Positions 44,804-64,000 of a stretch of DNA of 64,000 nt are shown in pieces (position 1 is the first letter of the stretch; the number at the start of each line of letters is the position of its first letter). A program made the translations under genes and the position numbers. This DNA comes from Allobosea sp. Leaf344 (GTDB lineage Bacteria > Pseudomonadota > Alphaproteobacteria > Rhizobiales > Beijerinckiaceae), in the NCBI RefSeq assembly GCF_001426225.1, contig NZ_LMRT01000001.1, forward strand, positions 599,090-663,089, read 5' to 3'. The notes under the pieces were generated by a model. The model saw only the letters and a list, made by a program, of their open reading frames with translations. It made no database searches and was not told the origin of the DNA.

Positions 44804-45973
44804 ATGACTCTTCATCTCGACGCACAGCCCCAGACGACGCGCGCAGAACTGCTGCCTTCACGGGATCACGCGCACTCTACTGAAGGCCAGCCAGTCTCGT
44901 GGCCGGCGATACAGACCGAGGCGGCACGGCCTCGCGCCATTCATGCCGCCCGGCGGGGTGTGCCGCTCCTCACCCTGCCCCCGCCACACGCCGTCCCGAC
45001 GCGATCGCAGCTGATCGCGTCCCTTCCCGAGGACGTATTGCTCCTGTGCCGCAGCGCGCTGGAGCGCCCGGGCTCGCGGCATGGCCGCGCGAGGGCGGCG
45101 CTGGCATCGCGGCTTCCTCCCGTCCCGCGCAGCCGGCGCAGCGCAGGGCTCGCGCGGATCGCGGCGACGCAACCGGCGGATTGCGAAACGCATGACGCGT
45201 TCTTCCGCATCCGCCGATGCGACGCCGCCCCGGCCGAGCGCTTTCTGCTGGGGCTGTTCGACGCGCACCGGCTGCTGCGCCGCGACATCGCGCAGAGCAT
45301 GACCTCGCTGCCGGACGAGCGGCTGGCGATCCTCGCCGATGGTCTCCTGGCGATCCTGGCCGCCGCGATCGGGCCTGCGAAGCTGGCACCCTCGGTCTGG
45401 AGACGGCAGGAGCGGGAGACGTCGCCGGACAATGCCGGGCTGCGCTGGATCAGGGGCCATCAGATCTTCGCCGTCCTCAGCCAGGGGATGATCTACGCAT
45501 TGGCCGAGACGGACAGCGCCGATCGCGACGGCGACGCGGCCAGCCGTGCCGGCGCGGCCGAACTCATGGCCGAACTGCTGGCGGCCAGCGCGGTCTCGCT
45601 GGAGCTGACCGGGGATTTTCCGGAGAGCTATTATCGGCAGACCGTGCGCGTCGGCATGGAAAGCCCGTTCTTGCCGCGCGGCTTCAGCGGGCTGCTCTCC
45701 CGCGATCATCGCGAGCTGGTCGCGCAGATGAAGCGGCTGCGCCCGATGATCGACCGGTTGCGCGAGCAGGAGCCGGCGCTTCATTCCCGGATCACGCGCA
45801 ATCTCGGCGCCGTCTATGCCAGCCACAAACATGTCTGCGCCCGTTTCGTCGGCGCCGACCAGTCGAGCCTGCTGATGGCGGAGATGCAAGGCCGCTCCGC
45901 CGTCGAGCAGATCGACAGGTTCGAGGCCATGCGGCTGCGGAGCTGGGCGCCGGCTGCGGAGACCGGCCGGTGA
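44804..45973 (+). CDS. unknown protein coupled to the phosphopantetheinyl transferase gene
   Basis: 389 residues from the ATG at 44804; a TTG start at 44717 would add 29 residues. I do not recognise the family. The first ~90 residues are Pro/Arg/Ala-rich and probably disordered. The rest is helical, with two hydrophobic stretches (RLAILADGLLAILAAAIG and IFAVLSQGMIYALAE), the segment GDFPESYYRQTVRVGME, and an amphipathic C-terminal part (HRELVAQMKRLRPMIDRLRE). Its stop overlaps the next start as GTGA, so it is translated together with the PPTase and belongs to the PKS-NRPS cluster. A role in acyl transfer, tailoring or regulation is possible but not shown. Confidence 0.75.
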   Translation: MTLHLDAQPQTTRAELLPSRDHAHSTEGQPVSWPAIQTEAARPRAIHAARRGVPLLTLPPPHAVPTRSQLIASLPEDVLLLCRSALERPGSRHGRARAALASRLPPVPRSRRSAGLARIAATQPADCETHDAFFRIRRCDAAPAERFLLGLFDAHRLLRRDIAQSMTSLPDERLAILADGLLAILAAAIGPAKLAPSVWRRQERETSPDNAGLRWIRGHQIFAVLSQGMIYALAETDSADRDGDAASRAGAAELMAELLAASAVSLELTGDFPESYYRQTVRVGMESPFLPRGFSGLLSRDHRELVAQMKRLRPMIDRLREQEPALHSRITRNLGAVYASHKHVCARFVGADQSSLLMAEMQGRSAVEQIDRFEAMRLRSWAPAAETGR

Positions 45974-46698
45974 CACCGATCGCCCCGAGCGGACCGCCGC
46001 TCGTCGTGATGCGCTCGCTCAGCCGGGCGCGCGCCGCCTTGCCCGCCTATGCCGCGCTGCTCGGCGAGGAGGAACGCGCCCAGGCCGGCCGCCTGCGCCA
46101 GATCACCGACCGCGACAGGTTCGTTCTGGGGCGCGGCCTGGCGCGGCTGCTGCTCGCGCAGGCCACGGGACGACAGCCGCGCGCGCTCGCCTTGACCCGC
46201 GACGAGCATGGCAAGCCCCGGCTCGCAGATGCGCAGGGGCTGGAATTCAACATCGCCCATTCCGGCGATCTCGTCGCCGTCGCCATCGGCCGCGACTGCG
46301 AGCTCGGGATCGACGTCGAGCGCCACCGGCCGGGCCTCGACACCGCCGCCATCGGCAGGCTGGTCTTCACCGAGGCGGAGATGGCCGGACTGGCGAGCCG
46401 GGCGGCGGGCGCCGGAACCGAGCCGTTCTTCCGGCAATGGGTGTTCAAGGAGGCGCTGGTCAAGGCTCTCGGGACGGGTCTGGCCCGCGACCCCAGGCGG
46501 TTCGAGATCCGCTTGGAAGGCGGCGAGCCCGCCGCCGCCTTCGTCGGCGGCGGAGAGGACGATATCGGCGGCCGCTGGCGCCTCTCGGCTCTGCCGGTCA
46601 CGCCAGGCTATTCCGCCGCATTGGCGTGGCGCTCGGCTTCACCGACAAAGACGATACCCGATTATGCCGCAACGTCGTTTTCTGATGTTCATGGTTAA
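45970..46698 (+). CDS. 4'-phosphopantetheinyl transferase (Sfp type)
   Basis: 242 residues, GTG start overlapping the previous stop. Sfp-type motifs are in order: GKPRLADAQG, FNIAHSGDLVAVAI, LGIDVERHRP (Mg-binding Asp and Glu) and FFRQWVFKEALVKALGTGL (the WxxKEAxxK signature). It would move the phosphopantetheine arm of CoA onto the serine of carrier domains in the PKS and NRPS of this cluster (Ser codons at 60081-60083, 55503-55505 and 52341-52343). Confidence 0.94.
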   Translation: MTPIAPSGPPLVVMRSLSRARAALPAYAALLGEEERAQAGRLRQITDRDRFVLGRGLARLLLAQATGRQPRALALTRDEHGKPRLADAQGLEFNIAHSGDLVAVAIGRDCELGIDVERHRPGLDTAAIGRLVFTEAEMAGLASRAAGAGTEPFFRQWVFKEALVKALGTGLARDPRRFEIRLEGGEPAAAFVGGGEDDIGGRWRLSALPVTPGYSAALAWRSASPTKTIPDYAATSFSDVHG

Positions 46699-46788
46699 CG
46701 CTTCATTGTCATCTTGGCTGCATTGATCTTGCCCATGCGCAGCCTGGGCGGCCTTCGCCGGCCTGGCCTGCGCCTGGAGCTCTCCCGC

Positions 46789-48201
46789 ATGCGCAAGATC
46801 GGCCTCCTGGTGCTCATGGCCCTGACCGGCTGCACGATGGGGCCGCAGCTGCCGCGGCAGGAACTTCCCGCCCTGCCGGCGGCCTATTCCGAGACGACCG
46901 GCAGCCTCAAAACCGCCGCCGCGCCGGCCGATGCGCCCTGGTGGCGCGCCTTCCGGGACCCGACGCTCGATCAGATCCTCGAGAGCGGGCTCGGCGGCAA
47001 TCTCGACATCCGCCAGGCCCAGGCCAGGCTGGCTGCGGCCGAAGCGGGCATCGCTTCGGCCGGGGCGAGCGGCTTTCCCGCGCTGACGCTCGGTGCCGCG
47101 AGCGGCGCGACGCGCGAGATCGGCCGGATGAAGCAGAAGCAGGGCGTGGTGCAGAGCACCGGCTATCAGCTTTCGGCGAGCTGGCTCCTCGATCTCTTCG
47201 GCGAGGTCCGCTCGCAGATCCAATCCGCCGAGGCCGCGCGCGATGCCGCCAAGGCGGCGACGGAGGTGGCGAGGCTGGCGCTGACCTCGGCGCTGGCGAG
47301 CCAATATGTGGAAGCGCGCCATCAGCAGGAACTGGCGGCGATCACCGCGCGCAGCCTGGCCGCGCGACGGCGGGCGCTGGCCCTGACGCAGGGGCTGCAG
47401 CGCGAGGGCATGGCGTCCGGCCTCGATGTCTCGCGCAGCGAAGAGGCGATGCGGGCGATCGCGGCGGAACAGCCGCTGCAGGAAGCGAATTTCCGCCGCG
47501 CGGCGCATCGTATGGCGACGCTGATCGGGCAGCCCGCCACCGCGCTGGTGCCGCTGCTCGACAGGCCGGCGGCGCAGCCGGAGCCGGCTTGGCCGGCCGA
47601 AACGGGCGTTCCCGCGGATCTGCTGCGCAACCGGCCGGACATCAGGCGCGCGGAACTCGATTATCTCGGCAGTCTCGCCGAGATCGGCTTCGCCTGGTCG
47701 CAGCTGTTTCCCTCGGTGACGCTGTCGGGCTCCATCGCCCCCTCCTATGTCAAGACGTCCGCCGCGAGCGGCCATCTCACGACATGGTCCTTCGGGCCGC
47801 AGCTGAAGCTGCCGATCTTCGATGGCGGCCGCCTGAACGCCAATGTGAAGATCGCCGTCGCGCGGGCGCAGGAGAAGGAGGCGGCGTGGCGAGCCAGCGT
47901 GCTGGCGGCCGTCGAGGAGGTCGAGACGGCGCTGGTGAGCTATCGTCGCGAGGCGGCGACGCTGAGCCGTACACAGGCGCGGCTCCGGGCGGCGCAGCGC
48001 AGCGCCGATCTGGCGCGCGCGGCCTATCGCGAGGGGCTGTCGGCGGCGTTCGAGATGCTCGATGCCGAGCGCCAGCTTTCCGATGCACAGACCGCGCAAG
48101 CGCAGTCGCGGCGCAATCTCGCTCTGCACTACATCGCGCTCAGCGTCGCTCTGGGGCGCGGCCTGCCCGGCCCCGGCAGCAGCCGGCCCGCCGCGGGCTG
48201 A
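46789..48201 (+). CDS. outer-membrane efflux lipoprotein (NodT/TolC family)
   Basis: 470 residues from the ATG at 46789. The N-terminus RKIGLLVLMALTGC is a lipoprotein signal with lipobox LTGC. Two tandem OEP repeats follow, each with long coiled-coil helices (NLDIRQAQARLAAAEAGIAS and VAIARAQEKEAAWRAS-like), plus FGPQLKLPIFDGGRLNANVK and the conserved LLRNRPDIRRAELDY. It forms the outer-membrane duct for the tripartite exporter encoded next. An upstream in-frame ATG at 46735 would bury the lipobox and is less likely. Confidence 0.92.
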   Translation: MRKIGLLVLMALTGCTMGPQLPRQELPALPAAYSETTGSLKTAAAPADAPWWRAFRDPTLDQILESGLGGNLDIRQAQARLAAAEAGIASAGASGFPALTLGAASGATREIGRMKQKQGVVQSTGYQLSASWLLDLFGEVRSQIQSAEAARDAAKAATEVARLALTSALASQYVEARHQQELAAITARSLAARRRALALTQGLQREGMASGLDVSRSEEAMRAIAAEQPLQEANFRRAAHRMATLIGQPATALVPLLDRPAAQPEPAWPAETGVPADLLRNRPDIRRAELDYLGSLAEIGFAWSQLFPSVTLSGSIAPSYVKTSAASGHLTTWSFGPQLKLPIFDGGRLNANVKIAVARAQEKEAAWRASVLAAVEEVETALVSYRREAATLSRTQARLRAAQRSADLARAAYREGLSAAFEMLDAERQLSDAQTAQAQSRRNLALHYIALSVALGRGLPGPGSSRPAAG

Positions 48202-48402: not shown

Positions 48403-49527
48403 GTGACGACGCTGATCGCCTGGCGCAACCTGATCCACGACCCGGTCAGGTTCGCGGCGACCTTGATCGGGATCATCTTCTCGGTGGTGCTGATGGCCGT
48501 CCAGGCCGGCATGCTGCTCGGCTTCGCCGAGACGACGACGGGGCTGGTGCGCCAGTCCCGGGCGAATATCTGGCTGGTGCCGCGCGGCACCACCAATGTC
48601 GACCAATCGGCGATCCTGCCGCAGAGAACCTATTTCCAGGCGCTGAAGACCGCCGGCGTGGCGGAGGCCGCCCGCCACATCGTGCGCTTCGTCAGCTGGC
48701 GCCTGCCGCGGGGCGGCTCCCAGCTCGTCATCGTCGTCGGCTTCGATCCCGTCTCCGGGCTGGCCGGGCCCTGGAACGTGGTCGAGGGCTCGGTGGCGGC
48801 GCTCTCCGCGCCGCATATGGTGATGATCGACCGGCTCTATGCCGCCAAGCTCGGCGTCAGGGCGATCGGCGACAGCGTCGAGATCTCGGGGCGGCGGGCG
48901 ATCGTCGCCGGCTTCACGCAGGGCGCGCGCACCTTCACCCAGGCGCCCTATGTCTTCACCAGCTACGCCAACGCGCTGCGCTATACCGAGGTGCTGGACG
49001 GCGATGCGAGCTATGTGCTGGTGCGCGCCCAGCCGGGGATCGCGCTGGCGCCCCTGGTCGCCAGGCTGCAGGCGGCGGCGCCCAACACCGACGTGATGAC
49101 GGCGGAGGCCTTCGCCGCCAAGACCCGCGATTACTGGATCTTCACCACCGGCGCCGGCTCCGCCCTGATCATGGGGGCCTCGCTCGGCGCGCTGGTCGGC
49201 ATCGTCATCGTCGCCCAGACGCTCTATGCGGCGACGCTGGAGCGGATCGGCGAATATGCGACGCTGGCCGCGATCGGCGCCGGACATGGCTATCTCAGTG
49301 CCATCGTCATCAAGCAGGCGCTGATCTGCGGCGCGGCCGGCTATGGCATCGCCGCCCTGGTCGCGCTCAGCATCGCCTTCGCCGCCCGCGGCGCGCCAGC
49401 CGCCATCCTGTTCACGCCAAGCGCGCTCGGCCTGCTGGCCGTAGCGGCGCTGCTGATGTGCTGCCTCTCGGCGCTGATCGCCATCCGCAAGCTGTCGACG
49501 ATCGACCCCACGAGCGTGTTCCGATGA
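48403..49527 (+). CDS. ABC exporter permease, DevC/FtsX-like
   Basis: 374 residues, GTG start after GAGGG. One N-terminal membrane helix (AATLIGIIFSVVLMAVQAGM), a large periplasmic domain of about 220 residues, then three C-terminal helices (GALVGIVIVAQTLYAATLER, CGAAGYGIAALVALSIAF, ALGLLAVAALLMCCLSALIA). This four-helix layout is that of MacB/DevC-type permeases. It overlaps the ATPase gene by 4 nt. Confidence 0.9.
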   Translation: MTTLIAWRNLIHDPVRFAATLIGIIFSVVLMAVQAGMLLGFAETTTGLVRQSRANIWLVPRGTTNVDQSAILPQRTYFQALKTAGVAEAARHIVRFVSWRLPRGGSQLVIVVGFDPVSGLAGPWNVVEGSVAALSAPHMVMIDRLYAAKLGVRAIGDSVEISGRRAIVAGFTQGARTFTQAPYVFTSYANALRYTEVLDGDASYVLVRAQPGIALAPLVARLQAAAPNTDVMTAEAFAAKTRDYWIFTTGAGSALIMGASLGALVGIVIVAQTLYAATLERIGEYATLAAIGAGHGYLSAIVIKQALICGAAGYGIAALVALSIAFAARGAPAAILFTPSALGLLAVAALLMCCLSALIAIRKLSTIDPTSVFR

Positions 49528-50261
49528 GCGAAGCCGATCGCAGCATCCGGGTCGAGGCGGCCGAGCTCCGCTATGGCCGCGCCGATACCGGCACCCATGC
49601 CCTGCGCGGCGTCAGCCTCCAGGCCATGCCGGGGGAGGTGCTGATGATCCGCGGCCCGTCCGGCAGCGGCAAGACCACGCTGCTGCAGCTGATGGGCGCG
49701 CTCAAGACGCCGGATAAGGGGATGGTGAGCATCTGCGGCGAGACCACCGGCGGCTGTTCGGCGGCGGCGCTGCGCAGCCTGAGGCTGCGGCGGATCGGCT
49801 TCGTCTTCCAGTTCTTCAACCTGTTCCCGACGCTCTCGGCCTGGGAGAACGTGGCCATCCCGCTCGATATCCGGGGTGTGCCGCGGCAGGATTCGGAGCG
49901 GGCGGCGCGGGCGATGCTCGAGGAGGTCGGCCTCGGCGACCGGGCCGATTTCAAGCCGGGCCAGCTTTCCGGCGGGCAGCGCCAGCGTGTCGCCGTCGCG
50001 CGCGCCCTGATGAACGAGCCCGACGTCATTCTCGCCGACGAGCCGACCGCGGCGCTGGACGGCGTCAACGGCGCCATCGTCATCGCCGCGCTCCGGCGGC
50101 TCGCCCATCGCAAGGGCCGCGTCGTGGTGGTGGTATCGCATGACCAGCGCCTGCAGGACCAGGTCGACCGCTGCATCACCATCGAGGACGGGCTCGTCGT
50201 CGCCACCCCGGCGCCGCCCGCCCCCTTCTCCCCGCGTCGCGTATCGGAGTCGATCGGATGA
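49524..50261 (+). CDS. ABC exporter ATP-binding protein, DevA/LolD-like
   Basis: 245 residues. Walker A is GPSGSGKTT, the Q-loop region reads FVFQFFNLFPTLSAWENV, the signature is LSGGQRQRVAVARAL, and Walker B is VILADEPTAALD. The sequence is of the MacB/LolD/DevA type that energises tripartite exporters. Overlaps of 4 nt at both ends tie it to the permease and membrane-fusion genes. Confidence 0.94.
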   Translation: MSEADRSIRVEAAELRYGRADTGTHALRGVSLQAMPGEVLMIRGPSGSGKTTLLQLMGALKTPDKGMVSICGETTGGCSAAALRSLRLRRIGFVFQFFNLFPTLSAWENVAIPLDIRGVPRQDSERAARAMLEEVGLGDRADFKPGQLSGGQRQRVAVARALMNEPDVILADEPTAALDGVNGAIVIAALRRLAHRKGRVVVVVSHDQRLQDQVDRCITIEDGLVVATPAPPAPFSPRRVSESIG

Positions 50262-51499
50262 CAGCGCAGCCGAAGGCCTCCGCCAGCGTCGCCCTGGTGC
50301 TGATCCTGATCGCCGGCGCCTATACCAGCCTGGATCGCGGCGGGATCGGCGGCGGCCAGGGCCATGCGACGACGGCGGGTGGAACGGGCGGTGCCGGCCC
50401 GCGGCGGCAGGTGGTGGCCGGGCTGGGCGTGGTCGAGCCGAGCTCCGGCACCATCGACCTCGCCGCGCCGGCGCTCGGCATCCTGTCCTCCGTCAGGGTC
50501 CGCGAGGGCGACCGCGTCCGCCGGGGCGAGATCGTCGCGGAGATCGCCAATGACGATCTGAAGGCGCGCCTCGCGCAGGCGGAGGCGACGCTCGCGATCA
50601 GGACCGCGCAGGCGCGGCTGATCGAGGAGGGTCCCCGCACCGAGGAGATCCGCAAGGCCGAGGCGCAGTTGCGCGAAGAGGAGGGCAATCTCAGGCTGAT
50701 GCAGGCGCAGTTCGAGCGGCGCCAGCGGCTGGTGCGCGAGGGCGCGGTCTCCTCCGAGGCGCTCAACGCCGCCGGCAACAGCCTGACCGCGGCGCGGGAG
50801 CGGCGCAGCGCCGCCGAGAACAGCCTGCAGATCCTGCGCCAGGGCGCCCGCCCGGACGAGATCGGCGCGGCACGGGCCGAGGTGCGGCTGGCGGAGAACC
50901 AGCTGGCCGAGGCGCGGGCCGCTCTGGCCAAATCCTTCGTCCGGGCCAGCACCGACGGCGTGGTGCTGCGCCGCTACCGCGAGCCGGGCGAGGCGATCTC
51001 GACCCAGAACATCGTGCCGGTGGTGCAGATCGCCGATCTGTCGCGGCTGGTCGTGCGCACCCAGATCGACGAGAACGACATCGCCGAGCTGAGCATCGGC
51101 CAGGGCGCCGAGATCTCGGCGCCGGCCCTCAACGGCCGCAGGCTCGCCGGGCGGGTCGAGCGGATCAGCCCCCGCCTCGGCGCCAAGATCGTGTCCTCGG
51201 ATTCGCCGACCGAGAAGCGCGATGCCCGCGTGCTCGACGTGATCGTGGCGCTGCCGCCGGGTGCCAGCCTGCCGATCAATCTGCGCGTCGACGTCGTCAT
51301 CGACCTCACCAGCGCGGCCGTGCCGGTGGCGGGGCTGCGCGGCCCGCTCGGCAACGGTCCGGCGCCGCTCCCGCGCGCCCTTGCGGCTGCGCCCCCGCCC
51401 TGCGCCGTCACGGGCTGCAAGCCGGCCGAGGCGGTTTTGGCCGGCTCCGCGCTCGACCCGCGTCCCGTGCCGATCCGGCAGAGCCGGCTCTACGACTGA
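50258..51499 (+). CDS. membrane-fusion (HlyD/DevB-type) subunit
   Basis: 413 residues. One N-terminal membrane anchor (ASASVALVLILIAGAY), a first half-lipoyl strand set (GILSSVRVREGDRVRRGEIV), a long coiled coil (about residues 100-215, with KAEAQLREEEGNLRLMQAQF), the second half-lipoyl part and a beta-barrel region (VVRTQIDENDIAELSIGQG). It would bridge the inner-membrane ABC pump and the NodT-like outer-membrane protein. Its stop codon lies 10 bp from that of the convergent NRPS gene. Confidence 0.92.
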   Translation: MTAQPKASASVALVLILIAGAYTSLDRGGIGGGQGHATTAGGTGGAGPRRQVVAGLGVVEPSSGTIDLAAPALGILSSVRVREGDRVRRGEIVAEIANDDLKARLAQAEATLAIRTAQARLIEEGPRTEEIRKAEAQLREEEGNLRLMQAQFERRQRLVREGAVSSEALNAAGNSLTAARERRSAAENSLQILRQGARPDEIGAARAEVRLAENQLAEARAALAKSFVRASTDGVVLRRYREPGEAISTQNIVPVVQIADLSRLVVRTQIDENDIAELSIGQGAEISAPALNGRRLAGRVERISPRLGAKIVSSDSPTEKRDARVLDVIVALPPGASLPINLRVDVVIDLTSAAVPVAGLRGPLGNGPAPLPRALAAAPPPCAVTGCKPAEAVLAGSALDPRPVPIRQSRLYD

Positions 51500-54500: not shown

Positions 54501-57500
54501 CTCGGCTCGGTTGGCGATCGGCGCTCCGAGCACGATCTCGTCCTGCCCCGACCAGCGCGCCAGCAGGGCCGCCCAGGCGGCCGCCATCACGATGAAGGGC
54601 GTGGCCTGCCGCGTTCTGGCGAAGGCGAGGATGCGCTCGGCCAGCTCCGGCGGCAGCGCGACCGCGCAGGATGCGCCGGCGTCGCTGCGCTGCGCCGGGC
54701 GCCGATGGTCGAATGGCAGGCTCAACTGCTCCGGCGCTCCCGCAAGCCGTGCCGTCCAGAAGGCGAGATGGGAGGCGATGGCGTCGGGCCCGAGCTGCGC
54801 CCGCTGCCACAGCGCATAATCCGCATACTGGGCCGGAAGCGGCGCGAGGGCCGCGCGCTCGCCCGACACCGCCTCGTGATAGAGCGCCGCCAGCTCGCGC
54901 TGCAGGATGGCGACCGACCACCCGTCGGAGACGATGTGATGCAGCGTCACCAGCACGATGTGATCGGCGGGCCCCAGCTTCAGGACCAGCACGCGCAGCG
55001 GCGGATCGGATTCGAGGTCGAATGGCCGCAGCGCCTCTTCCCGCGCGCGCCTCAGCGCCTCCGCCGGGCCCTGCGCCGAGACATCCTCGCGGCGGAAGCC
55101 GGGCTCGCCCTCGGCCAGCACCTGCTGCGAGGGCTGGCCGCCGCTGTCGGAAAAGCGCGTCCGCAGCGATTCGTGCCGTGCGACCAGCCCCGCGAAAGCC
55201 CGGCGCAGCGCGTCGAGGTCCAGCTCGCCTTCGAGCCGGATCGCGACGGGGATGTTGTAGGCGGGGCTGGCCGGATCGAGCTTGTGCAGGAACCAGAGCC
55301 GCTCCTGCTCGAAGGAGAGCGGGATCGCGGGCGGGCGCGGCAGGGCGCCGAAAGCCACGCCCGCGGCATCGGCGGCGGCGGGCTGGAGCGCATCGATCCG
55401 GGCGGCGAGTTCGCCGAGGCGCGGCGCCTCGAAGAGCAGGCGGATCGGCAGGTCGAGCCCGATGCTCTGCCGCAGATGCGAGGCGAGCTGCGTCGCCAGC
55501 AGCGAATGGCCGCCGAGCTCGAAGAAATGGCTGCCGGTATCGGGCGCGGAGACGCCGAGCACCGCCGCGAAAGCCTCGGCCAGCAGCCGCTCGGTCGCGG
55601 TGCCGGGCGCCACGCCCGTCACGGCGGCGAACTCCGGCTCCGGCAGGGCGCGCTCGTCGAGCTTGCCATGCGGCGTCAGCGGCAGAGCGGGCAGGATGAT
55701 GATGGCGGCCGGCACCATATGCGCCGGCAGGCGCCGCTGCAGGGACGCGCGCAGCGCCTCAGGCTCCGGCGCGGTTTGCGCCTGCTCCGGCACCGCATAG
55801 GCGAGCAACCGGGTCGCCCCCCTGGCGTCCGGACGGGCGATGACCGCCGCCTGAATGATCCCGGGATGGGCGCGCAGCACCGCCTCGACCTCTCCCGGCT
55901 CCACCCGGAAGCCGCGGATCTTCACCTGCGCATCGCTGCGGCCGAGGCAGAGGAGCTGACCGTCCTCGCGCCAGCAGCCGCGATCGCCCGTGCGATAGAG
56001 CCTGCCGAAGACAGGATGCGTGACGAAGCGCGCCGCCGTCTCCGCCTCCCTGTCGAGATAGGCTTCCGCCAGGCCGGCGCCGCCGATGCAGAGTTCGCCC
56101 TCGGCCCCGATGCCGAGCGGCTCCAGCTCCGCATCCAGCACATGCAGGCTGTAATTCGGCAAAGGCCGGCCGATCGGCAGGACCCGCCCGGGATCCGCCG
56201 AGGCCGCGGGCGCGCGATAGGCGGTGGCGTCGATGCAGGCCTCCGTCGGCCCGTAGATGTTGAAGACCGGCACGCCGAGTCTTTGCTGCAGCCGCGCGGC
56301 GAGCGCGCCCGATAGCGGCTCCCCACCCAGCATGAGCTGCTTCAGCGTGGTGCGCGCCGGCGCATCCGGCAGCACCGCCTCAAGGAAGGAGGGGACGGAA
56401 TTGACATGGGTGACCGCGTGGCGCCGCAGGATGTCCCAGAATTGCGCGCCCGAGGCGACGCCGAGTTCGCCGGCGATGACGATGGTCGCTCCGGCCAGGA
56501 GCGGCGTCAGCAACTGCCCGAGCGAGACGTCGAAGCCGATCGCCGCCGCCGCCAGCACCCGGTCCCCCGGCCCGATCGGATCGTGATCGAGCCGGGCATG
56601 AGCGAAATTGACCAGCGCCCCGTGCGAGACCGCGACGCCCTTGGGCCGCCCGGTCGAGCCGGAGGTATAGATGAGATAAGCGAGGCTGCGCGGCGTGAGC
56701 GCGGGCGCCACGAGATCGCCCGACGTCTCGTCATCGGCCTCCACCGCCAGGCGGACGGGCCCCGCAGGCGCGCGCGCGCCCGTCTCGGCATCGACGATGA
56801 CGAAGCCGGCGCCGGCATCCGCGCTCATCGCCTGCAGCCGGTCCTGCGGATAGGCGGGGTCGAGCGGGAGATAGACGCAGCCCGCCTTGAGCAGGCCGAG
56901 CAGCGCGACCACGCTCTGCGGCGAGCGCGGCAGCATCACGCCGACGACGTCGCCGCAGGCGGCGCCCCGCGCCTGGAGCCGTCGCGCGAGACGATCGGAG
57001 GCGGCGTCGAGCTGGGCATAGCTCAGCTGCACCCCGTCGGCGACGATGGCGGGCGCGTCCGGCTGGCGCGCGGCGCGCCTGGCGAAGAGGGCCTGGAGCG
57101 GCTCCTCCGGCACGGCCAGGCGCCGCCCCTCGCTCCAGCTGGCCAGCAATCGCCGCTCCACCGGCACCAGGCCGTCGATGCGCGTGAGCGCTGTCGCCTC
57201 GCCTGCCGTGACGTCGCGGATGACCTCGCGCAGGCACAGGGCGAAGCGCTCGACCTCGGCCCGCGCCAGGATGGCCGGATCGAACCGCAGGGCGATCGCC
57301 AGCCCGGTGCGATCGGCGGCTTCGTCGACATAGATCCCCAGCGCCGAGGTTTCGCGGCGGCGCAGCGGCAGCGACCAGACCGGCCGGCCGCCGATGCTGG
57401 GGCGCAGCTCGCGCAGCGGCGGCATCATCGTCACGGCGACGTCGAACAGGCTGCGATCGGCGCGGTCGGCGAAGGCGCCGTCGGCGGCGAGATGCCGGCC

Positions 57501-58547
57501 GAGCGCGTCGATCGGAAGGCGCTGATGGCGGAGATCCGCGTCGAAACCCGCCGCGAGCGCCCGCAGCGCCCCGCTCAGATCGTCCTCCGGCGCGATCCGG
57601 CAGCGGAGCGGGACCATCCCCGCCAGCATCCCGATCACGGCGCGGCTGGCGAGGTCGCGGCCATGCAGCGCCATGCCCAGCGAAAACTCGCGCAGCCGGT
57701 AGCGGCGCGAAAGCGCGATCGCAATCGTCGCCAGCAGCGCGCGATGCAGCGTGGTCCCGGCCGCCTGCGCGGCGGTGTCGAGGGCCTCGAACTCGCTCCG
57801 GTCGAGGCTGAAGGCGATGTCGTCCTGCTCCTCGCCGGGGGGCGGCGCAGCGACCTCCATCGGCTTCGGGCGACCCGCGAAGACCAGGGCGGGCAGAGGC
57901 GAGAGCCGCGCGCGCCAATAGGCGAGATCCTCCTGATAGCGTGCGGAGGCGGCATAGGCTTCGTCTTCATCGACGATGCGGCGATACTGCGCCTGCGGGA
58001 TCGCCGGAGTATCCGCACCCGCTTCCTCGCCGGGCTCCGCCTCGCCGCAGAGCGAGCGATAGGCCCGCAGCCAGTAGAGCTGCGCCAGCCCGATCGAGAC
58101 GCCGTCGGCCGCGAGGTGATGCGCCAGCATCAGCAGCCGCCAGCGCGCCGGGCCGAGCCTTATGAGCTCGACCCGGAACAGCGGCTCCTCGTCCAGGCGA
58201 AAGCCCCGCTCCTGCGCGGCGCGCAGATGAGCGCGCAGTGCCGCATCCGGCTCCGCGGCTTGCGAGAGGTCGACCAGGGCGAAGGGCGGAGCGCCCGCCG
58301 GCTCGAGCCATTGCAGCGGCCTGTCCCGGCACACCCTGAGGCGCAGCCCGTCCTGCCTGCCCATCATCAGGCGCACGGCCTGGCGCGCGAGATCGGGGTC
58401 GATCTCGCTGTCGAAGGCGACGAGACAGCCGAGCTGATACGCGGCGGGATCGTCGATCAGGCAGGTATCGAGCCAGACGGCGCGCTGCGCATGGCTGAGG
58501 GGAAAGAGTTCGCGGGTCGGCGCGGGCGGCTTCTGCTGGATCGTCAT
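51510..58547 (-). CDS. two-module non-ribosomal peptide synthetase (C-A-T-C-A-T-TE)
   Basis: 2345 residues from the ATG at 58547, which overlaps the MATE stop; longer frames overlap that gene. Domains: C1 with HHLAADG at 143-149; A1 with TSGSTG at 628; T1 serine 1015 (GGHSL); C2 with HHIVSDG at 1203; A2 with TSGSTG at 1681; T2 serine 2069; and a C-terminal thioesterase with GHSFGG, serine 2198, and a His in CDHYAVLN. By alignment to GrsA from memory, the specificity residues read DVGNMGIIDK (A1) and DVGNIGAIDK (A2). These are nearly equal, and the Asp at position 331 resembles ornithine/arginine-type codes (tentative). C1 probably accepts the chain from the PKS ACP. No epimerase domain is present. 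Confidence 0.95.
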   Translation of the reverse strand: MTIQQKPPAPTRELFPLSHAQRAVWLDTCLIDDPAAYQLGCLVAFDSEIDPDLARQAVRLMMGRQDGLRLRVCRDRPLQWLEPAGAPPFALVDLSQAAEPDAALRAHLRAAQERGFRLDEEPLFRVELIRLGPARWRLLMLAHHLAADGVSIGLAQLYWLRAYRSLCGEAEPGEEAGADTPAIPQAQYRRIVDEDEAYAASARYQEDLAYWRARLSPLPALVFAGRPKPMEVAAPPPGEEQDDIAFSLDRSEFEALDTAAQAAGTTLHRALLATIAIALSRRYRLREFSLGMALHGRDLASRAVIGMLAGMVPLRCRIAPEDDLSGALRALAAGFDADLRHQRLPIDALGRHLAADGAFADRADRSLFDVAVTMMPPLRELRPSIGGRPVWSLPLRRRETSALGIYVDEAADRTGLAIALRFDPAILARAEVERFALCLREVIRDVTAGEATALTRIDGLVPVERRLLASWSEGRRLAVPEEPLQALFARRAARQPDAPAIVADGVQLSYAQLDAASDRLARRLQARGAACGDVVGVMLPRSPQSVVALLGLLKAGCVYLPLDPAYPQDRLQAMSADAGAGFVIVDAETGARAPAGPVRLAVEADDETSGDLVAPALTPRSLAYLIYTSGSTGRPKGVAVSHGALVNFAHARLDHDPIGPGDRVLAAAAIGFDVSLGQLLTPLLAGATIVIAGELGVASGAQFWDILRRHAVTHVNSVPSFLEAVLPDAPARTTLKQLMLGGEPLSGALAARLQQRLGVPVFNIYGPTEACIDATAYRAPAASADPGRVLPIGRPLPNYSLHVLDAELEPLGIGAEGELCIGGAGLAEAYLDREAETAARFVTHPVFGRLYRTGDRGCWREDGQLLCLGRSDAQVKIRGFRVEPGEVEAVLRAHPGIIQAAVIARPDARGATRLLAYAVPEQAQTAPEPEALRASLQRRLPAHMVPAAIIILPALPLTPHGKLDERALPEPEFAAVTGVAPGTATERLLAEAFAAVLGVSAPDTGSHFFELGGHSLLATQLASHLRQSIGLDLPIRLLFEAPRLGELAARIDALQPAAADAAGVAFGALPRPPAIPLSFEQERLWFLHKLDPASPAYNIPVAIRLEGELDLDALRRAFAGLVARHESLRTRFSDSGGQPSQQVLAEGEPGFRREDVSAQGPAEALRRAREEALRPFDLESDPPLRVLVLKLGPADHIVLVTLHHIVSDGWSVAILQRELAALYHEAVSGERAALAPLPAQYADYALWQRAQLGPDAIASHLAFWTARLAGAPEQLSLPFDHRRPAQRSDAGASCAVALPPELAERILAFARTRQATPFIVMAAAWAALLARWSGQDEIVLGAPIANRAEPATQALIGFFVNTVALRADLTGRPGFGTLVERLRDHALDVFAHAALPLEQIVEAVKPVRRPGLHPLFQSVIAYQSAPPAKLAFAGLTASALPLPETTAKFDLTLVVNECEGAFEASITYALDLFLPKTMARLAEQLPRLLEAALAAPERPFTQLALLDEAAQARLAAASREPAHGQPLDTIPALFACRVAEQPEREAVRYRAVSLSFAELDRRANRLAHALITWGVGPGRPVAVLLGRSEALVIAALGIMKAGGVYMPVDPSHPAQRIAAILAQARPSVILADRETCTLAPRQWPALLCDAGDWHGPRQDEPTDAERLEPLTPQSPAYIIHTSGSTGAPKGVVVSHAALANLAAARQGHDPIGPGDRVLATLSVSFDVSIGQLVTPLLSGATVVVADDAGALAGPEFWSLMARESITSLNSGPAFLDAMLDTPPPALALRRLILGGEPFPVALARRLRAALPGTEIVNAYGPTESCIDAAIHRYDGTETGATLPIGRALPDYRVILLDEALQPVPPGIVGEICIGGPSVAIGYLALPQETAERFVPDPFGAAGERLYRSGDLGRLDDAGEISFLGRADRQVKIRGFRIELEEVAAALSSHPEIRSAVAVLRDHQGEPAILAYAVPENGDTARPVADWRGHLEARLPHYMVPSALVLLAALPMTVNGKLDLAALPAPEAGDRAEKTAPRDALDQALVAIVGSLLQCEVGIDDNFFGLGGHSLQALRLAAACQAQLQVALPIAAIYRHQTIRALADAIASGKALQARGPLVRLGDGPGRPVFCFHPVGGASFGYIGLAEALAGRRPVYGVQASGLEAGEPLAETIDSMMEAYLGAIRSVQPVGPYALLGHSFGGLAAFEITRRLEAVGEVVDRLVLLDTSAAGEAWTMEMAQYTAHRIVRLEKERSGSTAPIDPDQERRVAAIVANNMRLSETYVPEIIATPMIYLLARRGDLPPDGRRDYWQAMSERPLAYPPLDCDHYAVLNRDNVAKLAVLFDQP

Positions 58548-59893
58548 GGTAAATCCGTGGAGGGGAGCAGGGCGCGGGGCCGGAGCGTTCCGGCATGGCG
58601 CGCGGCGATGCGCATCAGCAGCAGAGCGAGCCGCGCGGCGCTGGTGAGCAGGATGGCGCCGACGAGGCCGCCGGCGCCGAGCCCCTGCGAGAAGGCCAGC
58701 ATGGCGGCGAGCGGCGGCGTCGCGGCCATGCTCGCGATCTGGATCGCGGTGGGAACGGCGATGTCGTGCAAAGCGCGCAGCCCGGCCGAAGCCGCGAGGC
58801 TGAGCCCGTCGAGCATCAGGACGAGGCCGATGACGGGCAGCAGCGCCGCCATCGCGCCGGCGAGGCCCGGGTCGGGGGCATAGGCCCGCGCCACCTCTCC
58901 CGGCGCGAGCAGCCAGAGCAGCGTCACCGGGGACAGCATCAGCGCCAGCGTGACGAGATCGCGCCGCAGCCGCGCCGGCCTGGCCTCGGCCGACGCGGCC
59001 GCCACTCGGATGGCGGCGGCGTCGCCGATGCCGGCCGCCAGCAGCAGCGCCGGCAGGCTCAGGATCCAGCAGGACGCATAGGCCGCGAGCGGCACGGGGC
59101 CGAGCCAGCCGGCGAAGATCGTCAGCCAAAGGCCGAGCAGATGCAGGGTGCCCGCGGCACCGGCGGCGGAGAGGCCCAGCCCGATCTGCCGGGCCCGGTC
59201 CCGATGCGGGATCGGCTCCGCGCCGGCCCCGTCCGGCCGCTCGATGCGCAGCAGGGTCAGCACCAGCGCGATCGCCAGCGCCAGCCGCACGAGCGCGGTG
59301 GCCAGCGCCGAACCCAGCGCGCCCAGCGCCGGCACGCCCCAACCGCCGGCGATCAGCAGAGCGTTCAGAGCGAGATTGACGAGGTTGGCGAGCAGCATCG
59401 AGACGGCGACCAGGCCCGGCCGGCCGATCCCCTCGAGATGCACCGCGCAGGCCAGGGCGACCAGCCCGGCCGGGAGACCGAGCGCGGCGACCAGCATGAC
59501 AGGCGCGGCCGCGGCCACGAGGCCGGCCTCCTGGCCGCCCGCCAGCAGCAGCGCCGGAGCGAGCCAGGCGGCGGCGAGGCCGAGCCCGGCCATGGCGGCG
59601 GCGCAGGCCATGGCCCGCCGCCAGATCGCCAGCCGCCGCGCGCGCTCCGCCGGCGGTCTCGCGGCAGCGACCAGCACCAGCGCCGACAGGATGAAGGCGC
59701 CGAAGACCTCGCTCAGCCGCCCAAAACTGCCCTCGGCGAGCGTCGCCACGGCGAGCTCCCGCGCGCCGAACCGGGCCAGCATGACGGCGTCGACCAGCAC
59801 CATGGCGGCCAGCCCCGCCCGCGAGACGAGCATCGGCGCGGCGAGGCGCAGCAGCGAAGGCGCGATCGCGGCATCGGTCGGGGCGCGGGTCAT
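58544..59893 (-). CDS. MATE-family efflux transporter
   Basis: 449 residues with about twelve hydrophobic helices. The paired-half layout is visible: the first half begins APSLLRLAAPMLVSRAGLAA and the second LSAAGAAGTLHLLGLWLTIF, with GIGDAAAIRVAAA near the usual GxGxAxxxxV position. The start at 59893 is 1 nt from the PKS stop, and the end overlaps the NRPS start by 4 nt. It is co-transcribed with the synthases and may export the product or a precursor, or confer self-resistance. Confidence 0.85.
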   Translation of the reverse strand: MTRAPTDAAIAPSLLRLAAPMLVSRAGLAAMVLVDAVMLARFGARELAVATLAEGSFGRLSEVFGAFILSALVLVAAARPPAERARRLAIWRRAMACAAAMAGLGLAAAWLAPALLLAGGQEAGLVAAAAPVMLVAALGLPAGLVALACAVHLEGIGRPGLVAVSMLLANLVNLALNALLIAGGWGVPALGALGSALATALVRLALAIALVLTLLRIERPDGAGAEPIPHRDRARQIGLGLSAAGAAGTLHLLGLWLTIFAGWLGPVPLAAYASCWILSLPALLLAAGIGDAAAIRVAAASAEARPARLRRDLVTLALMLSPVTLLWLLAPGEVARAYAPDPGLAGAMAALLPVIGLVLMLDGLSLAASAGLRALHDIAVPTAIQIASMAATPPLAAMLAFSQGLGAGGLVGAILLTSAARLALLLMRIAARHAGTLRPRALLPSTDLP

Positions 59894-59894
59894 C

Positions 59895-62800
59895 TCAAGC
59901 AGCGAGGTTCGCCTGCGCCGGACCGGCGGGCTCGGCCGGCTGGCCCGGCGCGGCGCCCGCGAAACCGCGCGCCACCACATCGACCACGCCGGAGACCGTG
60001 CCGGCCTGGATCATCTGCATCACCGAGACCGGCCGCCCGAGCGTCTGCTCCAGCGCCTCCGCCAGTTCGACCGCCATCAGCGAATCGAGGCCGAGCTCCG
60101 ACAGGGCGCGGTCGGGCTCCACCTGGGCGGGCGGCGAGCCGACGACGCGGGCGACGCTGTCGGTGACGCAGGCCAGGATCGCGGCGCGGCGCTCCTCCGG
60201 GCTCATGGCGGCCAGCGCATCGGCCATCGATCCGGCATCCTGGCCGATCACCGCCATGCCCTCCGGGATCAGCTCGGAGAAGCGCGGCGTGCGCGCGCCG
60301 GGCAGGCTCTGGCCCAGCCGCAGCAGGTTGAACTGAGCGGCCGAGACCACGCCGGCCCCCGCGGCCATCAGCCGGCCGAGTTCGGCCAGAATGACCTTCG
60401 TCGGCGTCGCCTCCATGCCGGCGCGCTGTTCGAGCAGGCTCTCCACCTGCGCGTTGCGGGTGAGGAAGCCGCTATCCTTGATCGCGCCCCAGCCGACGGA
60501 CAGCGCCGGACGCCCCGCCGCGCGCCGCAGCTCGGCCAGCGCGTTCAGGAAGCTGTTGGCCGCGACATAGACGGCCTGGCCGGGATTGCCGACGACCACG
60601 GCGGAGGATGAGAACATGACGAAATGATCGAGCTCGTCCTGCAGCGTCGCGCGGTGCAGCGTCCAGGCTCCGAGCATCTTGGCCGCCATGACGTCATGCA
60701 TCAGCCTGCGGTCGACCTTGAGGAGAGGGGCGTCCTCGATCAGCGCGGCCGAATGGATCACGCCCCGCAGCGGCGGCATGGTGGCGCGCACCTCCCGCAG
60801 CACAGCTTCGAGCGCCGCGGCATCCGAGACATCGGCCGCGAAAGCGCGCGGGGCGGCGCCGGCCGCGTGCATCCGCGCCAGCCCGGCCTGCGCCTCCGCC
60901 GTGGCATCGCCGCGACGGGAGACGAGCGCCAGCGAGCGCGCGCCCTGCGCCACCAGCCATTCGGCGGTGGCGAGGCCGACGCCGCCGAGGCCGCCGGTGA
61001 CGAGATAGGTGGCATCGGGCCGGATCAGCCCGGCGCCGCTCGCCACCACCGTCAGCCTGTCCTGCGGCTCGGCATCCAGGGCGATCACCAGCTTGCCGAC
61101 ATGGCGGGCCTGCTGCATGGCGCGGAAGGCTTCCGCCGCGCGCGAGATCGGCATGAGCTGATGCGGCAGCGGGCGCAGCTCGCCCCCGGACAGCGCCGCG
61201 ACGATCCGGGCGAAGACGCGCTGCGCCAGATCCGGCCGCTCGACCAGCAGCGTATCGGCGTCGATCCCGAAATAGCTGAGGTTCTGGCGGAACGGCCGCA
61301 GGCCGATGCGGCTATTGGCGTAGAGATCACGCTTGCCGATTTCGAGGAAGCGGCCGAAGGGCTTCAGCACCTGCAGCCCCTTGGTGATCGCCTCCCCGGC
61401 CAGCGAGTTGAGCACGACATCGACGCCCTTGCCGCCGGTCAGCCGCATGACGTCGTCGGCGAAGGCGAGCGAGCGCGAGCTCAGCACATGATCGGCGCCC
61501 AAAGTCCTGACCAGCTGCTGCTTGTCGTCCGAGCTCGCGGTCGCGAAGATCACCGCGCCCTTCAGCCTGGCGATCTGCAGGGCGGCGAGGCCGACCCCGC
61601 CCGCCGCACCATGGATCAGCACGGATTCGCCCGGCTGGATCCGGGCGAGATGGTCGAGCGCGTACCAGGCCGTGACGAAGGCGGTCGGAATCGTCGCCGC
61701 TTCGGCGAAGCTCAGGCCCGCCGGGATCGCGGCGGCGCTGTCGACGCTGGTGGTGACATGGCTGGCGAAGCAGGAGGAGGCGAAGGCGATGACGCGGTCG
61801 CCCGGGCCGAACGCGGTCACGCCCGGCCCGACGCGCACGACCTCGCCGGCGCATTCCATGCCGATGGTCGGCCCCGAAAACCCTTTCTCGACCGCCTCCT
61901 CCGGCAGCATGCCCATGGTCCAGAGCACGTCGCGGAAATTGAGCCCCGCGGCCCGTATCGCGATCTCGATCTCGCCTCGCCCCGGCGCGCGACGCTCGAT
62001 CTCGCGCAGATGCAGCGAGGCGATGCCGCCGGCCGGCAGGAAATCGAGGCGGAAGGGCCGCCCCTCCCCGCCGGCCGTGGCCCGTTCCGGAGAGGAGGCG
62101 AGGCGCGTCTGGTCGGCGATCGAGCTTTCGCGGGTGCGGTGGACGTAGCGGCGCCCGCCCTCGAGTAGGGTCTCGGTCTCGTCGTCGCGGCGAAGCAGGG
62201 CCTGCGCCAGGCTCCTGCCGGCGGCGAGATCGCCGGGTTCGGCGTGGAGATCGATCAGCCGGCCGCCGATCGCGACCTGCTCATTGGCGATGACGCGGCT
62301 GACGCCGGCGATCGTCGCCTGGAACGGATCGCGCGGGGCGGCTCCCGAGGGGCTGGCGAAGGCGCCGCGCGTGACGATGGTCAGCACCGCCGCCACAGGC
62401 GGGGCAGCCGCGTCGACGGGGCGAAGCTCGAGAGCGCGGGCGAGCTGGATCGCGCTGAGGCAGCGCATCTCCTGCCGCGCCAGAATGCCGGCCTCCTCGC
62501 TGGCGGCCTCGGCGAAGCCGGCGAGATGGACGAATTCGACGGCGAGCGGCTCCGCGGCGACGATGGTCGCGAGATCCTCATCCGTCGGCTCGGCAGGCAG
62601 TTCGTGGATGGCGGCTCCGCCGATGCCCTGCAGCGCGTCCGCCAGTGCTGCGACCAGCGGGCAGTCGCGCTCGGCAGGCCCGATGACCAGAGCGCGCCGG
62701 CCGGGCAGGCGCGGCTCGGGCGCCGGTGCAGGCGCAGATGCTTTGGCGGGGCGCCGCACCAGCAGCAGCGCATGAAGCGCCGTCACATCCCCCGGCAGCG

Positions 62801-64000
62801 GGCCGATCTCGAAACCGGCCGCAGCGAGCCCGGCCGCGACATCGTCCGCAGCCGGAACCCGGCGCGAGAGCTGGAGCAGCGTGGCGAGCCGGCCGGGCTG
62901 CGGCAGGACCAGCAGGGCGACCCCGCCCGGCACCAGCAGCCTGGTCAGCGCATCCGCCGAGACCTCTGCCGAGGCGATGGCGAGGTCGAAGCCGGTCTCC
63001 TCCAGCGTCTGCGCCTCGGCGACGGCGCCGCGCAGGAAGTGGTAGCCGGCAAAGCGATTGGTGGCGCGGGCCACCGCCTGTTCGGACGGATCGGTTAACA
63101 GATAGTCGCTGCGCGCCGGCGGCAGGACCGGCAGGATCGCGGCAGCGAGCCCGCCGGTCGCGCCGGCGAGCTCGACGATGCGGATCGCGCGCCCCTCGGG
63201 CCAGCGGGAGACGAGCACATGCACCGCCTCGGCGGCCAGGGCATTGGCGGCCATGCGGGTCGGTGCCGTGTCTTCCAGCGCCTCGGCCATGGCGAGGGTA
63301 GGCGCCTCGCTCTCGCCGGCGATCCAGGACGCCAGCATCCGCCCGGCACGGCCGAGCGCCACCAGCTCCGCGGCATAGGCCGGCTGGGCCAAAAGGAGGT
63401 CGCGGCGCAGGCTCTCCGGGTCGGGCGGCTCCACATCCCTGGTCCAGGCATGGACCGGGGTCTGGCCGAGCTCGCCACGCTGCAGGAACCCATCCTCGAC
63501 GGCGATGTCGAGCAGGGCCTGAAGCCGCGGCAGACGATCCGGCGGGGTCCCCGCGGCCTCGGCCAGCGCGGCCAGAGTGAAGGGGCGGCCGGCGGGGGCG
63601 AGGCTGCGGAGCGCCGTCACGGCATAGGCGGCGACGAGCGCATCGAGCCCGGGCCGAACCGTCTCGGCGAAGCCGGCGCCGCCACCGGCCGCCGCGATCA
63701 GCGTGAGCCGCGGCCGCAGCGCATCGGCGATCTCCGCCAGCGGCGGCAAGGCGAGCTTGCCGGACCGGGCGAGCGGCCAGGCCGGATCGGGGCGCCAATC
63801 CTCGGTCAGGATCGGCAGGGTCGCGGGCTTGAACTCGACCTTCTGGAAACGCCCCTCCTCGAGGAGGAGCACGACCCGGCCCTGCGCGTCCGTGACGGTG
63901 AAATCGGCCACGCCGGTGCGGGCGTTTTCGTGCCTCAGCACGACACGGCAGAACAGCCGGGCGGGCAGAGGCGCGAAGCTGCGGATCCGGCCGAGCTGCA
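59895..64000 (-). CDS. reducing type I polyketide synthase (partial, 5' end outside window)
   Basis: The frame stays open to the right edge, so at least 1368 residues belong to a larger protein. Order seen from the edge: the end of a dehydratase domain (RTGVADFTVTDAQGRVVLLL); a methyltransferase-like region (about 62800-63400) whose motif I reads VELAGATGGLAAAI; a ketoreductase structural half; an enoyl reductase (about 61100-62070) with HGAAGGVGLAALQIA; a ketoreductase (about 60350-61030) with TGGLGGVGLATAEW and the catalytic YVAANSFL; and an ACP with LGLDSLMAVEL (serine codon 60081-60083). KS and AT are expected beyond 64000. It would make a fully reduced acyl chain that C1 of the NRPS then condenses with an amino acid. 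Confidence 0.93.
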   Translation of the reverse strand, partial: QLGRIRSFAPLPARLFCRVVLRHENARTGVADFTVTDAQGRVVLLLEEGRFQKVEFKPATLPILTEDWRPDPAWPLARSGKLALPPLAEIADALRPRLTLIAAAGGGAGFAETVRPGLDALVAAYAVTALRSLAPAGRPFTLAALAEAAGTPPDRLPRLQALLDIAVEDGFLQRGELGQTPVHAWTRDVEPPDPESLRRDLLLAQPAYAAELVALGRAGRMLASWIAGESEAPTLAMAEALEDTAPTRMAANALAAEAVHVLVSRWPEGRAIRIVELAGATGGLAAAILPVLPPARSDYLLTDPSEQAVARATNRFAGYHFLRGAVAEAQTLEETGFDLAIASAEVSADALTRLLVPGGVALLVLPQPGRLATLLQLSRRVPAADDVAAGLAAAGFEIGPLPGDVTALHALLLVRRPAKASAPAPAPEPRLPGRRALVIGPAERDCPLVAALADALQGIGGAAIHELPAEPTDEDLATIVAAEPLAVEFVHLAGFAEAASEEAGILARQEMRCLSAIQLARALELRPVDAAAPPVAAVLTIVTRGAFASPSGAAPRDPFQATIAGVSRVIANEQVAIGGRLIDLHAEPGDLAAGRSLAQALLRRDDETETLLEGGRRYVHRTRESSIADQTRLASSPERATAGGEGRPFRLDFLPAGGIASLHLREIERRAPGRGEIEIAIRAAGLNFRDVLWTMGMLPEEAVEKGFSGPTIGMECAGEVVRVGPGVTAFGPGDRVIAFASSCFASHVTTSVDSAAAIPAGLSFAEAATIPTAFVTAWYALDHLARIQPGESVLIHGAAGGVGLAALQIARLKGAVIFATASSDDKQQLVRTLGADHVLSSRSLAFADDVMRLTGGKGVDVVLNSLAGEAITKGLQVLKPFGRFLEIGKRDLYANSRIGLRPFRQNLSYFGIDADTLLVERPDLAQRVFARIVAALSGGELRPLPHQLMPISRAAEAFRAMQQARHVGKLVIALDAEPQDRLTVVASGAGLIRPDATYLVTGGLGGVGLATAEWLVAQGARSLALVSRRGDATAEAQAGLARMHAAGAAPRAFAADVSDAAALEAVLREVRATMPPLRGVIHSAALIEDAPLLKVDRRLMHDVMAAKMLGAWTLHRATLQDELDHFVMFSSSAVVVGNPGQAVYVAANSFLNALAELRRAAGRPALSVGWGAIKDSGFLTRNAQVESLLEQRAGMEATPTKVILAELGRLMAAGAGVVSAAQFNLLRLGQSLPGARTPRFSELIPEGMAVIGQDAGSMADALAAMSPEERRAAILACVTDSVARVVGSPPAQVEPDRALSELGLDSLMAVELAEALEQTLGRPVSVMQMIQAGTVSGVVDVVARGFAGAAPGQPAEPAGPAQANLAA

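What the first reader, a model, noticed from the sequence alone, without database searches (positions are those of the whole stretch)
44804..64000. Hybrid PKS-NRPS locus with its own PPTase and DevBCA-NodT-type exporter
On one strand sit an unknown protein, a PPTase, an outer-membrane lipoprotein and a full ABC/membrane-fusion pump. On the other sit a reducing PKS, a MATE pump and a C-A-T-C-A-T-TE NRPS. DevBCA/TolC systems are known for glycolipid export in cyanobacterial heterocysts, where reducing PKS genes and a PPTase also occur. The combination here suggests an alphaproteobacterial acyl-dipeptide lipid pushed through the envelope. The parts are seen; the product and export role are inferred.
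Basis: partly seen in the sequence, partly recalled or inferred. Interest (0 to 1): 0.72.

Follow-up and report, generated by a model that had tools for sequence, protein, structure and literature searches.

The report
Rare PKS-NRPS cluster with SfmD-like enzyme
A bacterium carries a rare set of genes that probably makes a fatty acid joined to two amino acids; an unrecognised heme enzyme probably oxidises part of it and a dedicated pump probably exports it, and the same core set turns up in two unrelated bacteria, so it is a real but uncharacterised pathway.

The parts
44804..45973 (+). SfmD-like histidine-ligated heme oxygenase/peroxygenase (389 aa; a TTG start at 44717 is also possible; first ~41 residues predicted disordered)
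46009..46698 (+). 4'-phosphopantetheinyl transferase, Sfp/HetI-like; ATG at 46009, start not certain
   Evidence: Pfam ACPS 5.5e-14; NCBIfam HetI 96.6 bits, below cut-off 370; one of 3 ACPS-domain matches in the genome; ATG checked
46714..48201 (+). NodT-family outer-membrane factor, lipoprotein (true start probably ATG 46789)
   Evidence: TIGR01845 333 bits, cut-off 210.05; lipobox LMALTGC
48403..49527 (+). DevC-like / MacB-FtsX ABC permease
   Evidence: Pfam MacB_PCD and FtsX; TIGR01185 DevC 131.6 bits, below cut-off 290.35; sister to the Methylobacterium cluster's DevC, 96/97 support
49524..50261 (+). DevA-like ABC ATPase
   Evidence: Pfam ABC_tran 8.3e-33; DevA model 223.2 bits, below cut-off 295.8; sister to the Methylobacterium DevA, 99/99
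50258..51499 (+). DevB/HlyD-like membrane fusion protein
   Evidence: Pfam HlyD_D23 and HlyD_3; DevB model 121.1 bits, cut-off 129
51510..58547 (-). NRPS, 2345 aa, C-A-T-C-A-T-TE; A codes read as DVGNMGIIDK and DVGNIGAIDK; first C domain closest among solved structures to a lipoinitiating starter C domain
   Evidence: carrier GGHSL, C HHxxxDG and TE GHSFGG motifs present
58544..59893 (-). MATE-family transporter
   Evidence: Pfam MatE 2.9e-17; TIGR00797 85.1 bits, below cut-off 147.4
59895..64000 (-). C-terminal part of a highly reducing type I PKS (MT-like, ER, KR, ACP); the gene continues to window coordinate 67445 (N-terminal KS-AT-DH)
   Evidence: KS, AT, DH, ER, KR and ACP motifs read in a five-sequence alignment (motif definitions recalled)

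Best explanation
This is a rare, scattered biosynthetic cluster for an oxidised acyl-dipeptide with its own export. Proposed steps: (1) the PPTase loads the carrier domains; (2) the PKS, one module with KS, AT, DH, ER, KR and ACP, works repeatedly on malonyl units and makes a largely reduced acyl chain; (3) the first C domain of the NRPS joins this chain to amino acid 1, and the second module adds amino acid 2; (4) the TE domain releases the product by hydrolysis or ring closure; (5) the SfmD-like heme enzyme uses peroxide or oxygen to hydroxylate an aromatic ring, most likely a tyrosine-type building block or residue; (6) the MATE protein moves the product or a precursor across the inner membrane; (7) the DevC/A/B-like pump with its outer-membrane lipoprotein pushes it out of the envelope. 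Shown: gene content, domain order, intact catalytic motifs, fold and heme motif of the SfmD-like protein, conservation of the core in three organisms and of DevC/A/B in two. Inferred: every chemical and transport step.
For: Gene and domain content. SfmD identity by sequence, fold and conserved His/HxxxC residues. Same core in Methylobacterium nonmethylotrophicum and an Eremiobacterota MAG: PKS 61.3% and 54.8% identical, against 38-39% for the two RkpA-like PKSs aligned. Cluster SfmD-like proteins group together (91/92, a moderate value; window + Methylobacterium 98/97). DevC/A/B adjacent in both alphaproteobacterial clusters in a different gene order, DevC and DevA sister to each other (96/97, 99/99). 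First C domain closest to the RzmA starter C (7c1k, 1.6e-24; identity of 7C1H-7C1U from passages of PMC7804268). Members of the heme superfamily generally bind tyrosine- or tryptophan-type substrates (passages of PMC11791213).
Against: The A codes do not read as a known tyrosine code; by memory they are nearest to the ornithine code DVGEIGSIDK and share fewer positions with the saframycin-type code DPWGLGLIDK. No paper held contains either code. The starter-C match is only slightly better than the next solved C domain (Txo1, 1.2e-22). The Eremiobacterota genome has no DevC match. In Methylobacterium the outer-membrane factor is no close relative of the window's (E 0.011), and no PPTase match was found in about 51 kb around that cluster. 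Only three clusters are known to me, and 61/55% PKS identity does not prove an identical product.
Confidence: 0.55

Rival explanations
1. The biosynthetic core (SfmD-like, PKS, MATE, NRPS) is one unit, but the DevC/A/B-NodT pump is a neighbour that exports something else; MATE is the real exporter.
For: MATE is in 3 of 3 clusters, DevC/A/B in 2 of 3. The outer-membrane factors of the two are not close relatives. DevC-type genes occur in 60 of 297 genomes of the order; of 15 loci fetched (5-20 kb each), 0 had a PKS, NRPS, SfmD-like, PPTase or MATE match at E<=1e-6.
Against: DevC/A/B sits beside the SfmD-like gene in Methylobacterium too, in another gene order, and those DevC and DevA sequences are sister to the window's.
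Confidence: 0.25
2. The cluster makes a tetrahydroisoquinoline alkaloid of the saframycin/renieramycin kind from a hydroxylated methyltyrosine.
For: The SfmD family is known from those pathways; RenD and a single-contig relative (G1018) with two O-methyltransferase genes are in the same family.
Against: NRPS ends in a thioesterase; A codes differ from DPWGLGLIDK found beside the SfmD homologues of Azospirillum B510 and renieramycin; no separate methyltransferase among the cluster and flanking proteins tested; the cluster's SfmD-like proteins fall outside the RenD/Streptoalloteichus/G1018 group (98/95).
Confidence: 0.05
3. An envelope lipid like heterocyst glycolipid or a capsule lipid anchor: PKS chain attached to an amino-acid head group and laid down in the outer membrane.
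For: The PKS is 38-39% identical to RkpA-like PKSs beside capsule genes; devBCA is required for heterocyst glycolipid export in Anabaena (passages of PMC8064123).
Against: No glycosyltransferase or capsule gene among the cluster and flanking proteins tested; Dev and HetI models below cut-off; a sporadic distribution is unusual for an envelope component.
Confidence: 0.15

Closest known systems
SfmD, 3-methyl-L-tyrosine peroxygenase of saframycin biosynthesis (PDB 6vdp)
   Same: Fold, heme-ligand histidine and HxxxC motif, works beside an NRPS
   Different: 22-24% identical over the fold; partner enzymes, A codes and NRPS release domain differ; SfmD itself was not in my tree, its relatives RenD and Streptoalloteichus form another group
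Uncharacterised clusters of Methylobacterium nonmethylotrophicum 6HR-1 (NZ_SRLB01000004.1) and a Candidatus Eremiobacterota MAG (PLAE01000221.1)
   Same: SfmD-like, highly reducing PKS, MATE and NRPS; first A code DVGNMGMIDK in both; DevC/A/B also in Methylobacterium
   Different: Methylobacterium: divergent instead of convergent gene order, second A code DMEDMGVIDK, other outer-membrane factor, an FMN-dependent dehydrogenase gene, no PPTase found; Eremiobacterota: no DevC, NRPS cut by the contig end
RkpA-like PKSs of capsule clusters (Paraburkholderia dioscoreae, Pseudomonas sp. TMW 2.1634); the name RkpA is recalled
   Same: Alignable over nearly the whole length, same order of catalytic motifs
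   Different: 38-39% identical; beside an aminotransferase-family protein, LTA synthase and capsule genes, no NRPS
DevBCA-TolC glycolipid exporter of heterocystous cyanobacteria
   Same: Same three inner-membrane/periplasmic parts and an outer-membrane factor; DevC and DevA are the best NCBIfam models for the permease and ATPase
   Different: All three below the curated cut-offs; NodT-type lipoprotein as outer-membrane part
Lipopeptide NRPSs with a starter C domain (RzmA; CdaPS1)
   Same: First C domain most similar to the RzmA starter C
   Different: Acyl chain presumably comes from a dedicated PKS; only two modules

Membership tests
SfmD family / histidine-ligated heme-dependent aromatic oxygenases | Fold of the family | tested here: met
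SfmD family / histidine-ligated heme-dependent aromatic oxygenases | Axial His plus HxxxC heme attachment motif (motif recalled; the SfmD papers were not held) | tested here: met
   H302, H341, C345 invariant in the five-sequence alignments, aligned to SfmD; not invariant in the nine-row, where L057 is cut by its contig end before them
SfmD family / histidine-ligated heme-dependent aromatic oxygenases | Hydroxylates 3-methyltyrosine or another aromatic substrate | not testable with these tools
   needs enzyme assay
Saframycin-type tetrahydroisoquinoline cluster | SfmC-type A domain beside the SfmD gene (code DPWGLGLIDK, as read beside the Azospirillum and RenD genes) | tested here: not met
   A codes DVGNMGIIDK and DVGNIGAIDK; TE at the end of the NRPS
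DevBCA exporter | NCBIfam curated cut-offs for DevA, DevB, DevC | tested here: not met
   223.2/295.8, 121.1/129, 131.6/290.35 bits
DevBCA exporter | Exports a glycolipid through TolC | not testable with these tools
   needs mutants and lipid analysis
NodT outer-membrane factors | TIGR01845 cut-off | tested here: met
   333 bits, cut-off 210.05
HetI phosphopantetheinyl transferase | NF042922 cut-off | tested here: not met
   96.6 bits, cut-off 370; the general ACPS domain is present
Highly reducing type I PKS | KS, AT, DH, ER, KR and ACP with catalytic motifs in one chain | tested here: met
   the methyltransferase match (27.3 bits) is below its Pfam cut-off of 30
Starter (lipoinitiating) C domain | Closest to known starter C domains | tested here: inconclusive
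   RzmA starter C best at 1.6e-24, but Txo1 at 1.2e-22
MATE transporters | Pfam MatE cut-off | tested here: met
   63.3 bits, cut-off 24.9; below the TIGR00797 cut-off
Heterocyst glycolipid synthase set (hglB, C, D, E) | Presence of the hgl set | not tested
   no hgl proteins were compared

The most novel reading that the evidence does not exclude
An SfmD-clade heme enzyme has been recruited outside alkaloid biosynthesis to oxidise an acylated dipeptide (or a non-tyrosine building block) made by a single-module reducing PKS and a two-module NRPS. This would be an unrecognised lipopeptide class spread across Pseudomonadota and Eremiobacterota, with a DevC/A/B-like pump co-inherited in the alphaproteobacterial branch.
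Probability: 0.4. Interest if true: 0.65.

Novelty: new variant of a known kind. Interest (0 to 1): 0.5.

Why it matters
It extends a heme enzyme family known mainly from antitumour alkaloids to an acyl-peptide context in poorly studied bacteria, and offers three natural variants of one assembly line for finding its product. If the pump does carry the product, it would give a testable case of a DevBCA-like exporter moving a PKS-NRPS lipid outside cyanobacteria.

Tried and rejected
Idea that the heme enzyme N-hydroxylates arginine like DcsA (prompted by the basic-looking A codes): dropped, because DcsA is a YqcI/YcgG protein (passages of PMC8976061) and the fold here is the SfmD type.

Search for an empty site: relatives of the flanking M20 peptidase were found in 4 of 6 genomes searched (the congener G1097 and three family members, 37-55% identical); in the four stretches fetched none of the other flanking genes had a match at E<=1e-20. 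Insertion into a conserved site was not shown. The GC of the cluster (0.70-0.75 per 2 kb from 46 to 64 kb, against 0.59-0.71 before; 0.68-0.71 after) is only suggestive.

Known-product check: no paper held contains the A codes. SfmD with polyketide gives 3 papers; by their listing none describes such a cluster, and the one looked into names SfmD only in its reference list (PMC9570651). M. nonmethylotrophicum gives 6 papers; in the one read by passages (PMC8561711) antiSMASH classes are named but this cluster is not described in those passages. The SfmD papers PMC8179489 and PMC3281660 are not held, so the heme motif is recalled. No MIBiG or antiSMASH was available.

tRNA-Arg(gcg) at 63678-63748: inside the PKS gene, taken as a false positive.

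Substrate prediction from A codes: codes were read from motifs; the ornithine code used for comparison is recalled; no firm call made.
Full report
What is there. The window lies at contig C1:599090-663089 of a 4.35-Mb genome. Two gene sets converge, with 10 bases between them. On the plus strand: a 389-aa protein, a PPTase, a NodT-type outer-membrane lipoprotein, an FtsX/MacB-type permease, an ABC ATPase and an HlyD-type fusion protein. On the minus strand: PKS, MATE and NRPS. The PKS runs past the window to coordinate 67445 and is complete: KS, AT, DH, a methyltransferase-like region, ER, KR and ACP in 2516 aa. Next to it are an M20 peptidase, DUF808 and sugar/TRAP genes that look unrelated; on the other side is a formate dehydrogenase alpha gene (best plasmid-borne relatives are from Methylobacterium and Roseomonas, 78-80% identical).

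Relatives of the whole cluster. A genome-contig scan with an alignment of three SfmD-like proteins returned 8 confirmed loci. In two, other window proteins are also there: Methylobacterium nonmethylotrophicum (SfmD-like 37%, MATE 51%, NRPS 45%, DevC 54.5%, DevA 62%, DevB 44%) and a Candidatus Eremiobacterota MAG (SfmD-like 36%, MATE 41%, NRPS 42% up to the contig end). The aligned PKSs are 61.3% and 54.8% identical to the window's, against 38-39% for the two RkpA-like PKSs aligned. The other 6 of 8 loci have no full-length relative of this PKS; three of them have partial PKS matches of 28-34% identity (L053, L055, L057). In Methylobacterium the two gene sets diverge instead of converging, so content is kept while order is not; that argues for a functional link.

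What is not shared. The Methylobacterium locus has an outer-membrane efflux protein (Pfam OEP), but BLASTP against the window's NodT gives only E 0.011. No match to the window's PPTase was found in about 51 kb around that cluster. It has an FMN-dependent dehydrogenase gene next to the NRPS that the window lacks.

Is the pump part of it? DevC-type genes are common: 60 of 297 genomes of the order at E<=1e-10. In 15 loci fetched from 14 of these genomes, 12 have DevC, DevA and DevB matches together, and 0 of 15 have a match to the PKS, NRPS, SfmD-like, PPTase, MATE or NodT protein at E<=1e-6. The window's DevC and DevA group with those of the Methylobacterium cluster (96/97 and 99/99 support) apart from these 15 (14 for DevA). 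The Eremiobacterota genome and the window's congener G1097 have no DevC match at E<=1e-10; the former is a MAG, so absence is less certain there. My reading is that DevC/A/B joined the alphaproteobacterial branch and is inherited with it, while MATE is the constant transporter.

Rarity. SfmD-like matches: 3 of 297 genomes of the order, itself and two weak ones with stops in the matched stretch; 1 of 385 of the class, itself; 1 of 111 in the genus of M. nonmethylotrophicum, that species itself; 2 of 398 of the phylum, itself and G1018, whose locus has NRPS and two O-methyltransferase genes; 6 of 148 of the Eremiobacterota phylum, the known MAG and five weak ones. Some genomes recur among these samples. 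The congener and 11 other family members sampled have none. The distribution is scattered, as expected from horizontal transfer. The tree of 13 SfmD-family rows puts the three cluster proteins together (91/92, below the programme's star level) and apart from the RenD/Streptoalloteichus/G1018 group (98/95); three long branches (Sulfitobacter, G1018, A. vitis) and four weak forks limit it.

Chemistry. The PKS catalytic motifs are present; the AT motif (YAFH here, YPFH in the two relatives) is of the malonyl type by the usual rule (recalled). The methyltransferase-like region (Pfam 27.3 bits, below cut-off 30) has a differing glycine motif in each of the three PKSs and may be inactive. The NRPS has intact C, carrier and TE motifs. 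Its first C domain is closest to the RzmA starter C domain that attaches the acyl chain of rhizomide, though only slightly ahead of the next one. The A codes are DVGNMGIIDK and DVGNIGAIDK; the first is nearly the same in the two relatives (DVGNMGMIDK). They are not the saframycin-type DPWGLGLIDK found beside two SfmD homologues, and by memory are nearest to an ornithine code. So the amino acids are open, and the target of the heme enzyme is the main uncertainty.

Comparison with the known. The pump works like DevBCA in layout but is below the curated cut-offs for all three parts; the PPTase is below the HetI cut-off. The genome has two other ACPS-domain matches. The saframycin-type and heterocyst-type readings are set out under rivals. 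I saw no described cluster of this composition in the listings (open-licence papers only, 0 to 12 rows shown each; passages read).

Verdict. A real, conserved, uncharacterised cluster.

Noticed in passing
L013:10119-12558 and L053-L056: In Embleya sp. NBC_00888 and four Streptomyces loci, another SfmD-like gene lies head to head with a pyridoxal-dependent decarboxylase gene (PF00282 E 1.9e-93 in L013; 87-91% identical in the other four), which hints at hydroxylated aromatic amines.
   Followed up: partly
L012:14417-15552: In an Agrobacterium vitis plasmid the SfmD-like match covers the second of two adjacent reading frames inside an NRPS-PKS cluster; it is annotated 'siderophore biosynthesis protein'.
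   Followed up: no
L010 (Azospirillum sp. B510 plasmid pAB510f): NRPS genes with a DPWGLGLIDK A domain beside an SfmD homologue, a methyltransferase and a P450, with IS elements nearby: looks like a saframycin-type cluster on a plasmid.
   Followed up: no
L036-L044, L046, L048: Genomes of the window's order carry one or two DevC genes of a closer subgroup (about 37-42% to the window's DevC), mostly with DevA and DevB and with no PKS match; their cargo is unknown. The nearest outgroup L035 lies beside sugar transferase, glycosyltransferase and TetR genes.
   Followed up: partly
L064, L065: RkpA-like PKS beside aminotransferase, LTA synthase-family and capsule genes on plasmids of Paraburkholderia and Pseudomonas.
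   Followed up: no
window 63678-63748: ARAGORN calls a tRNA-Arg(gcg) inside the PKS gene on the same strand; probably a false positive.
   Followed up: no
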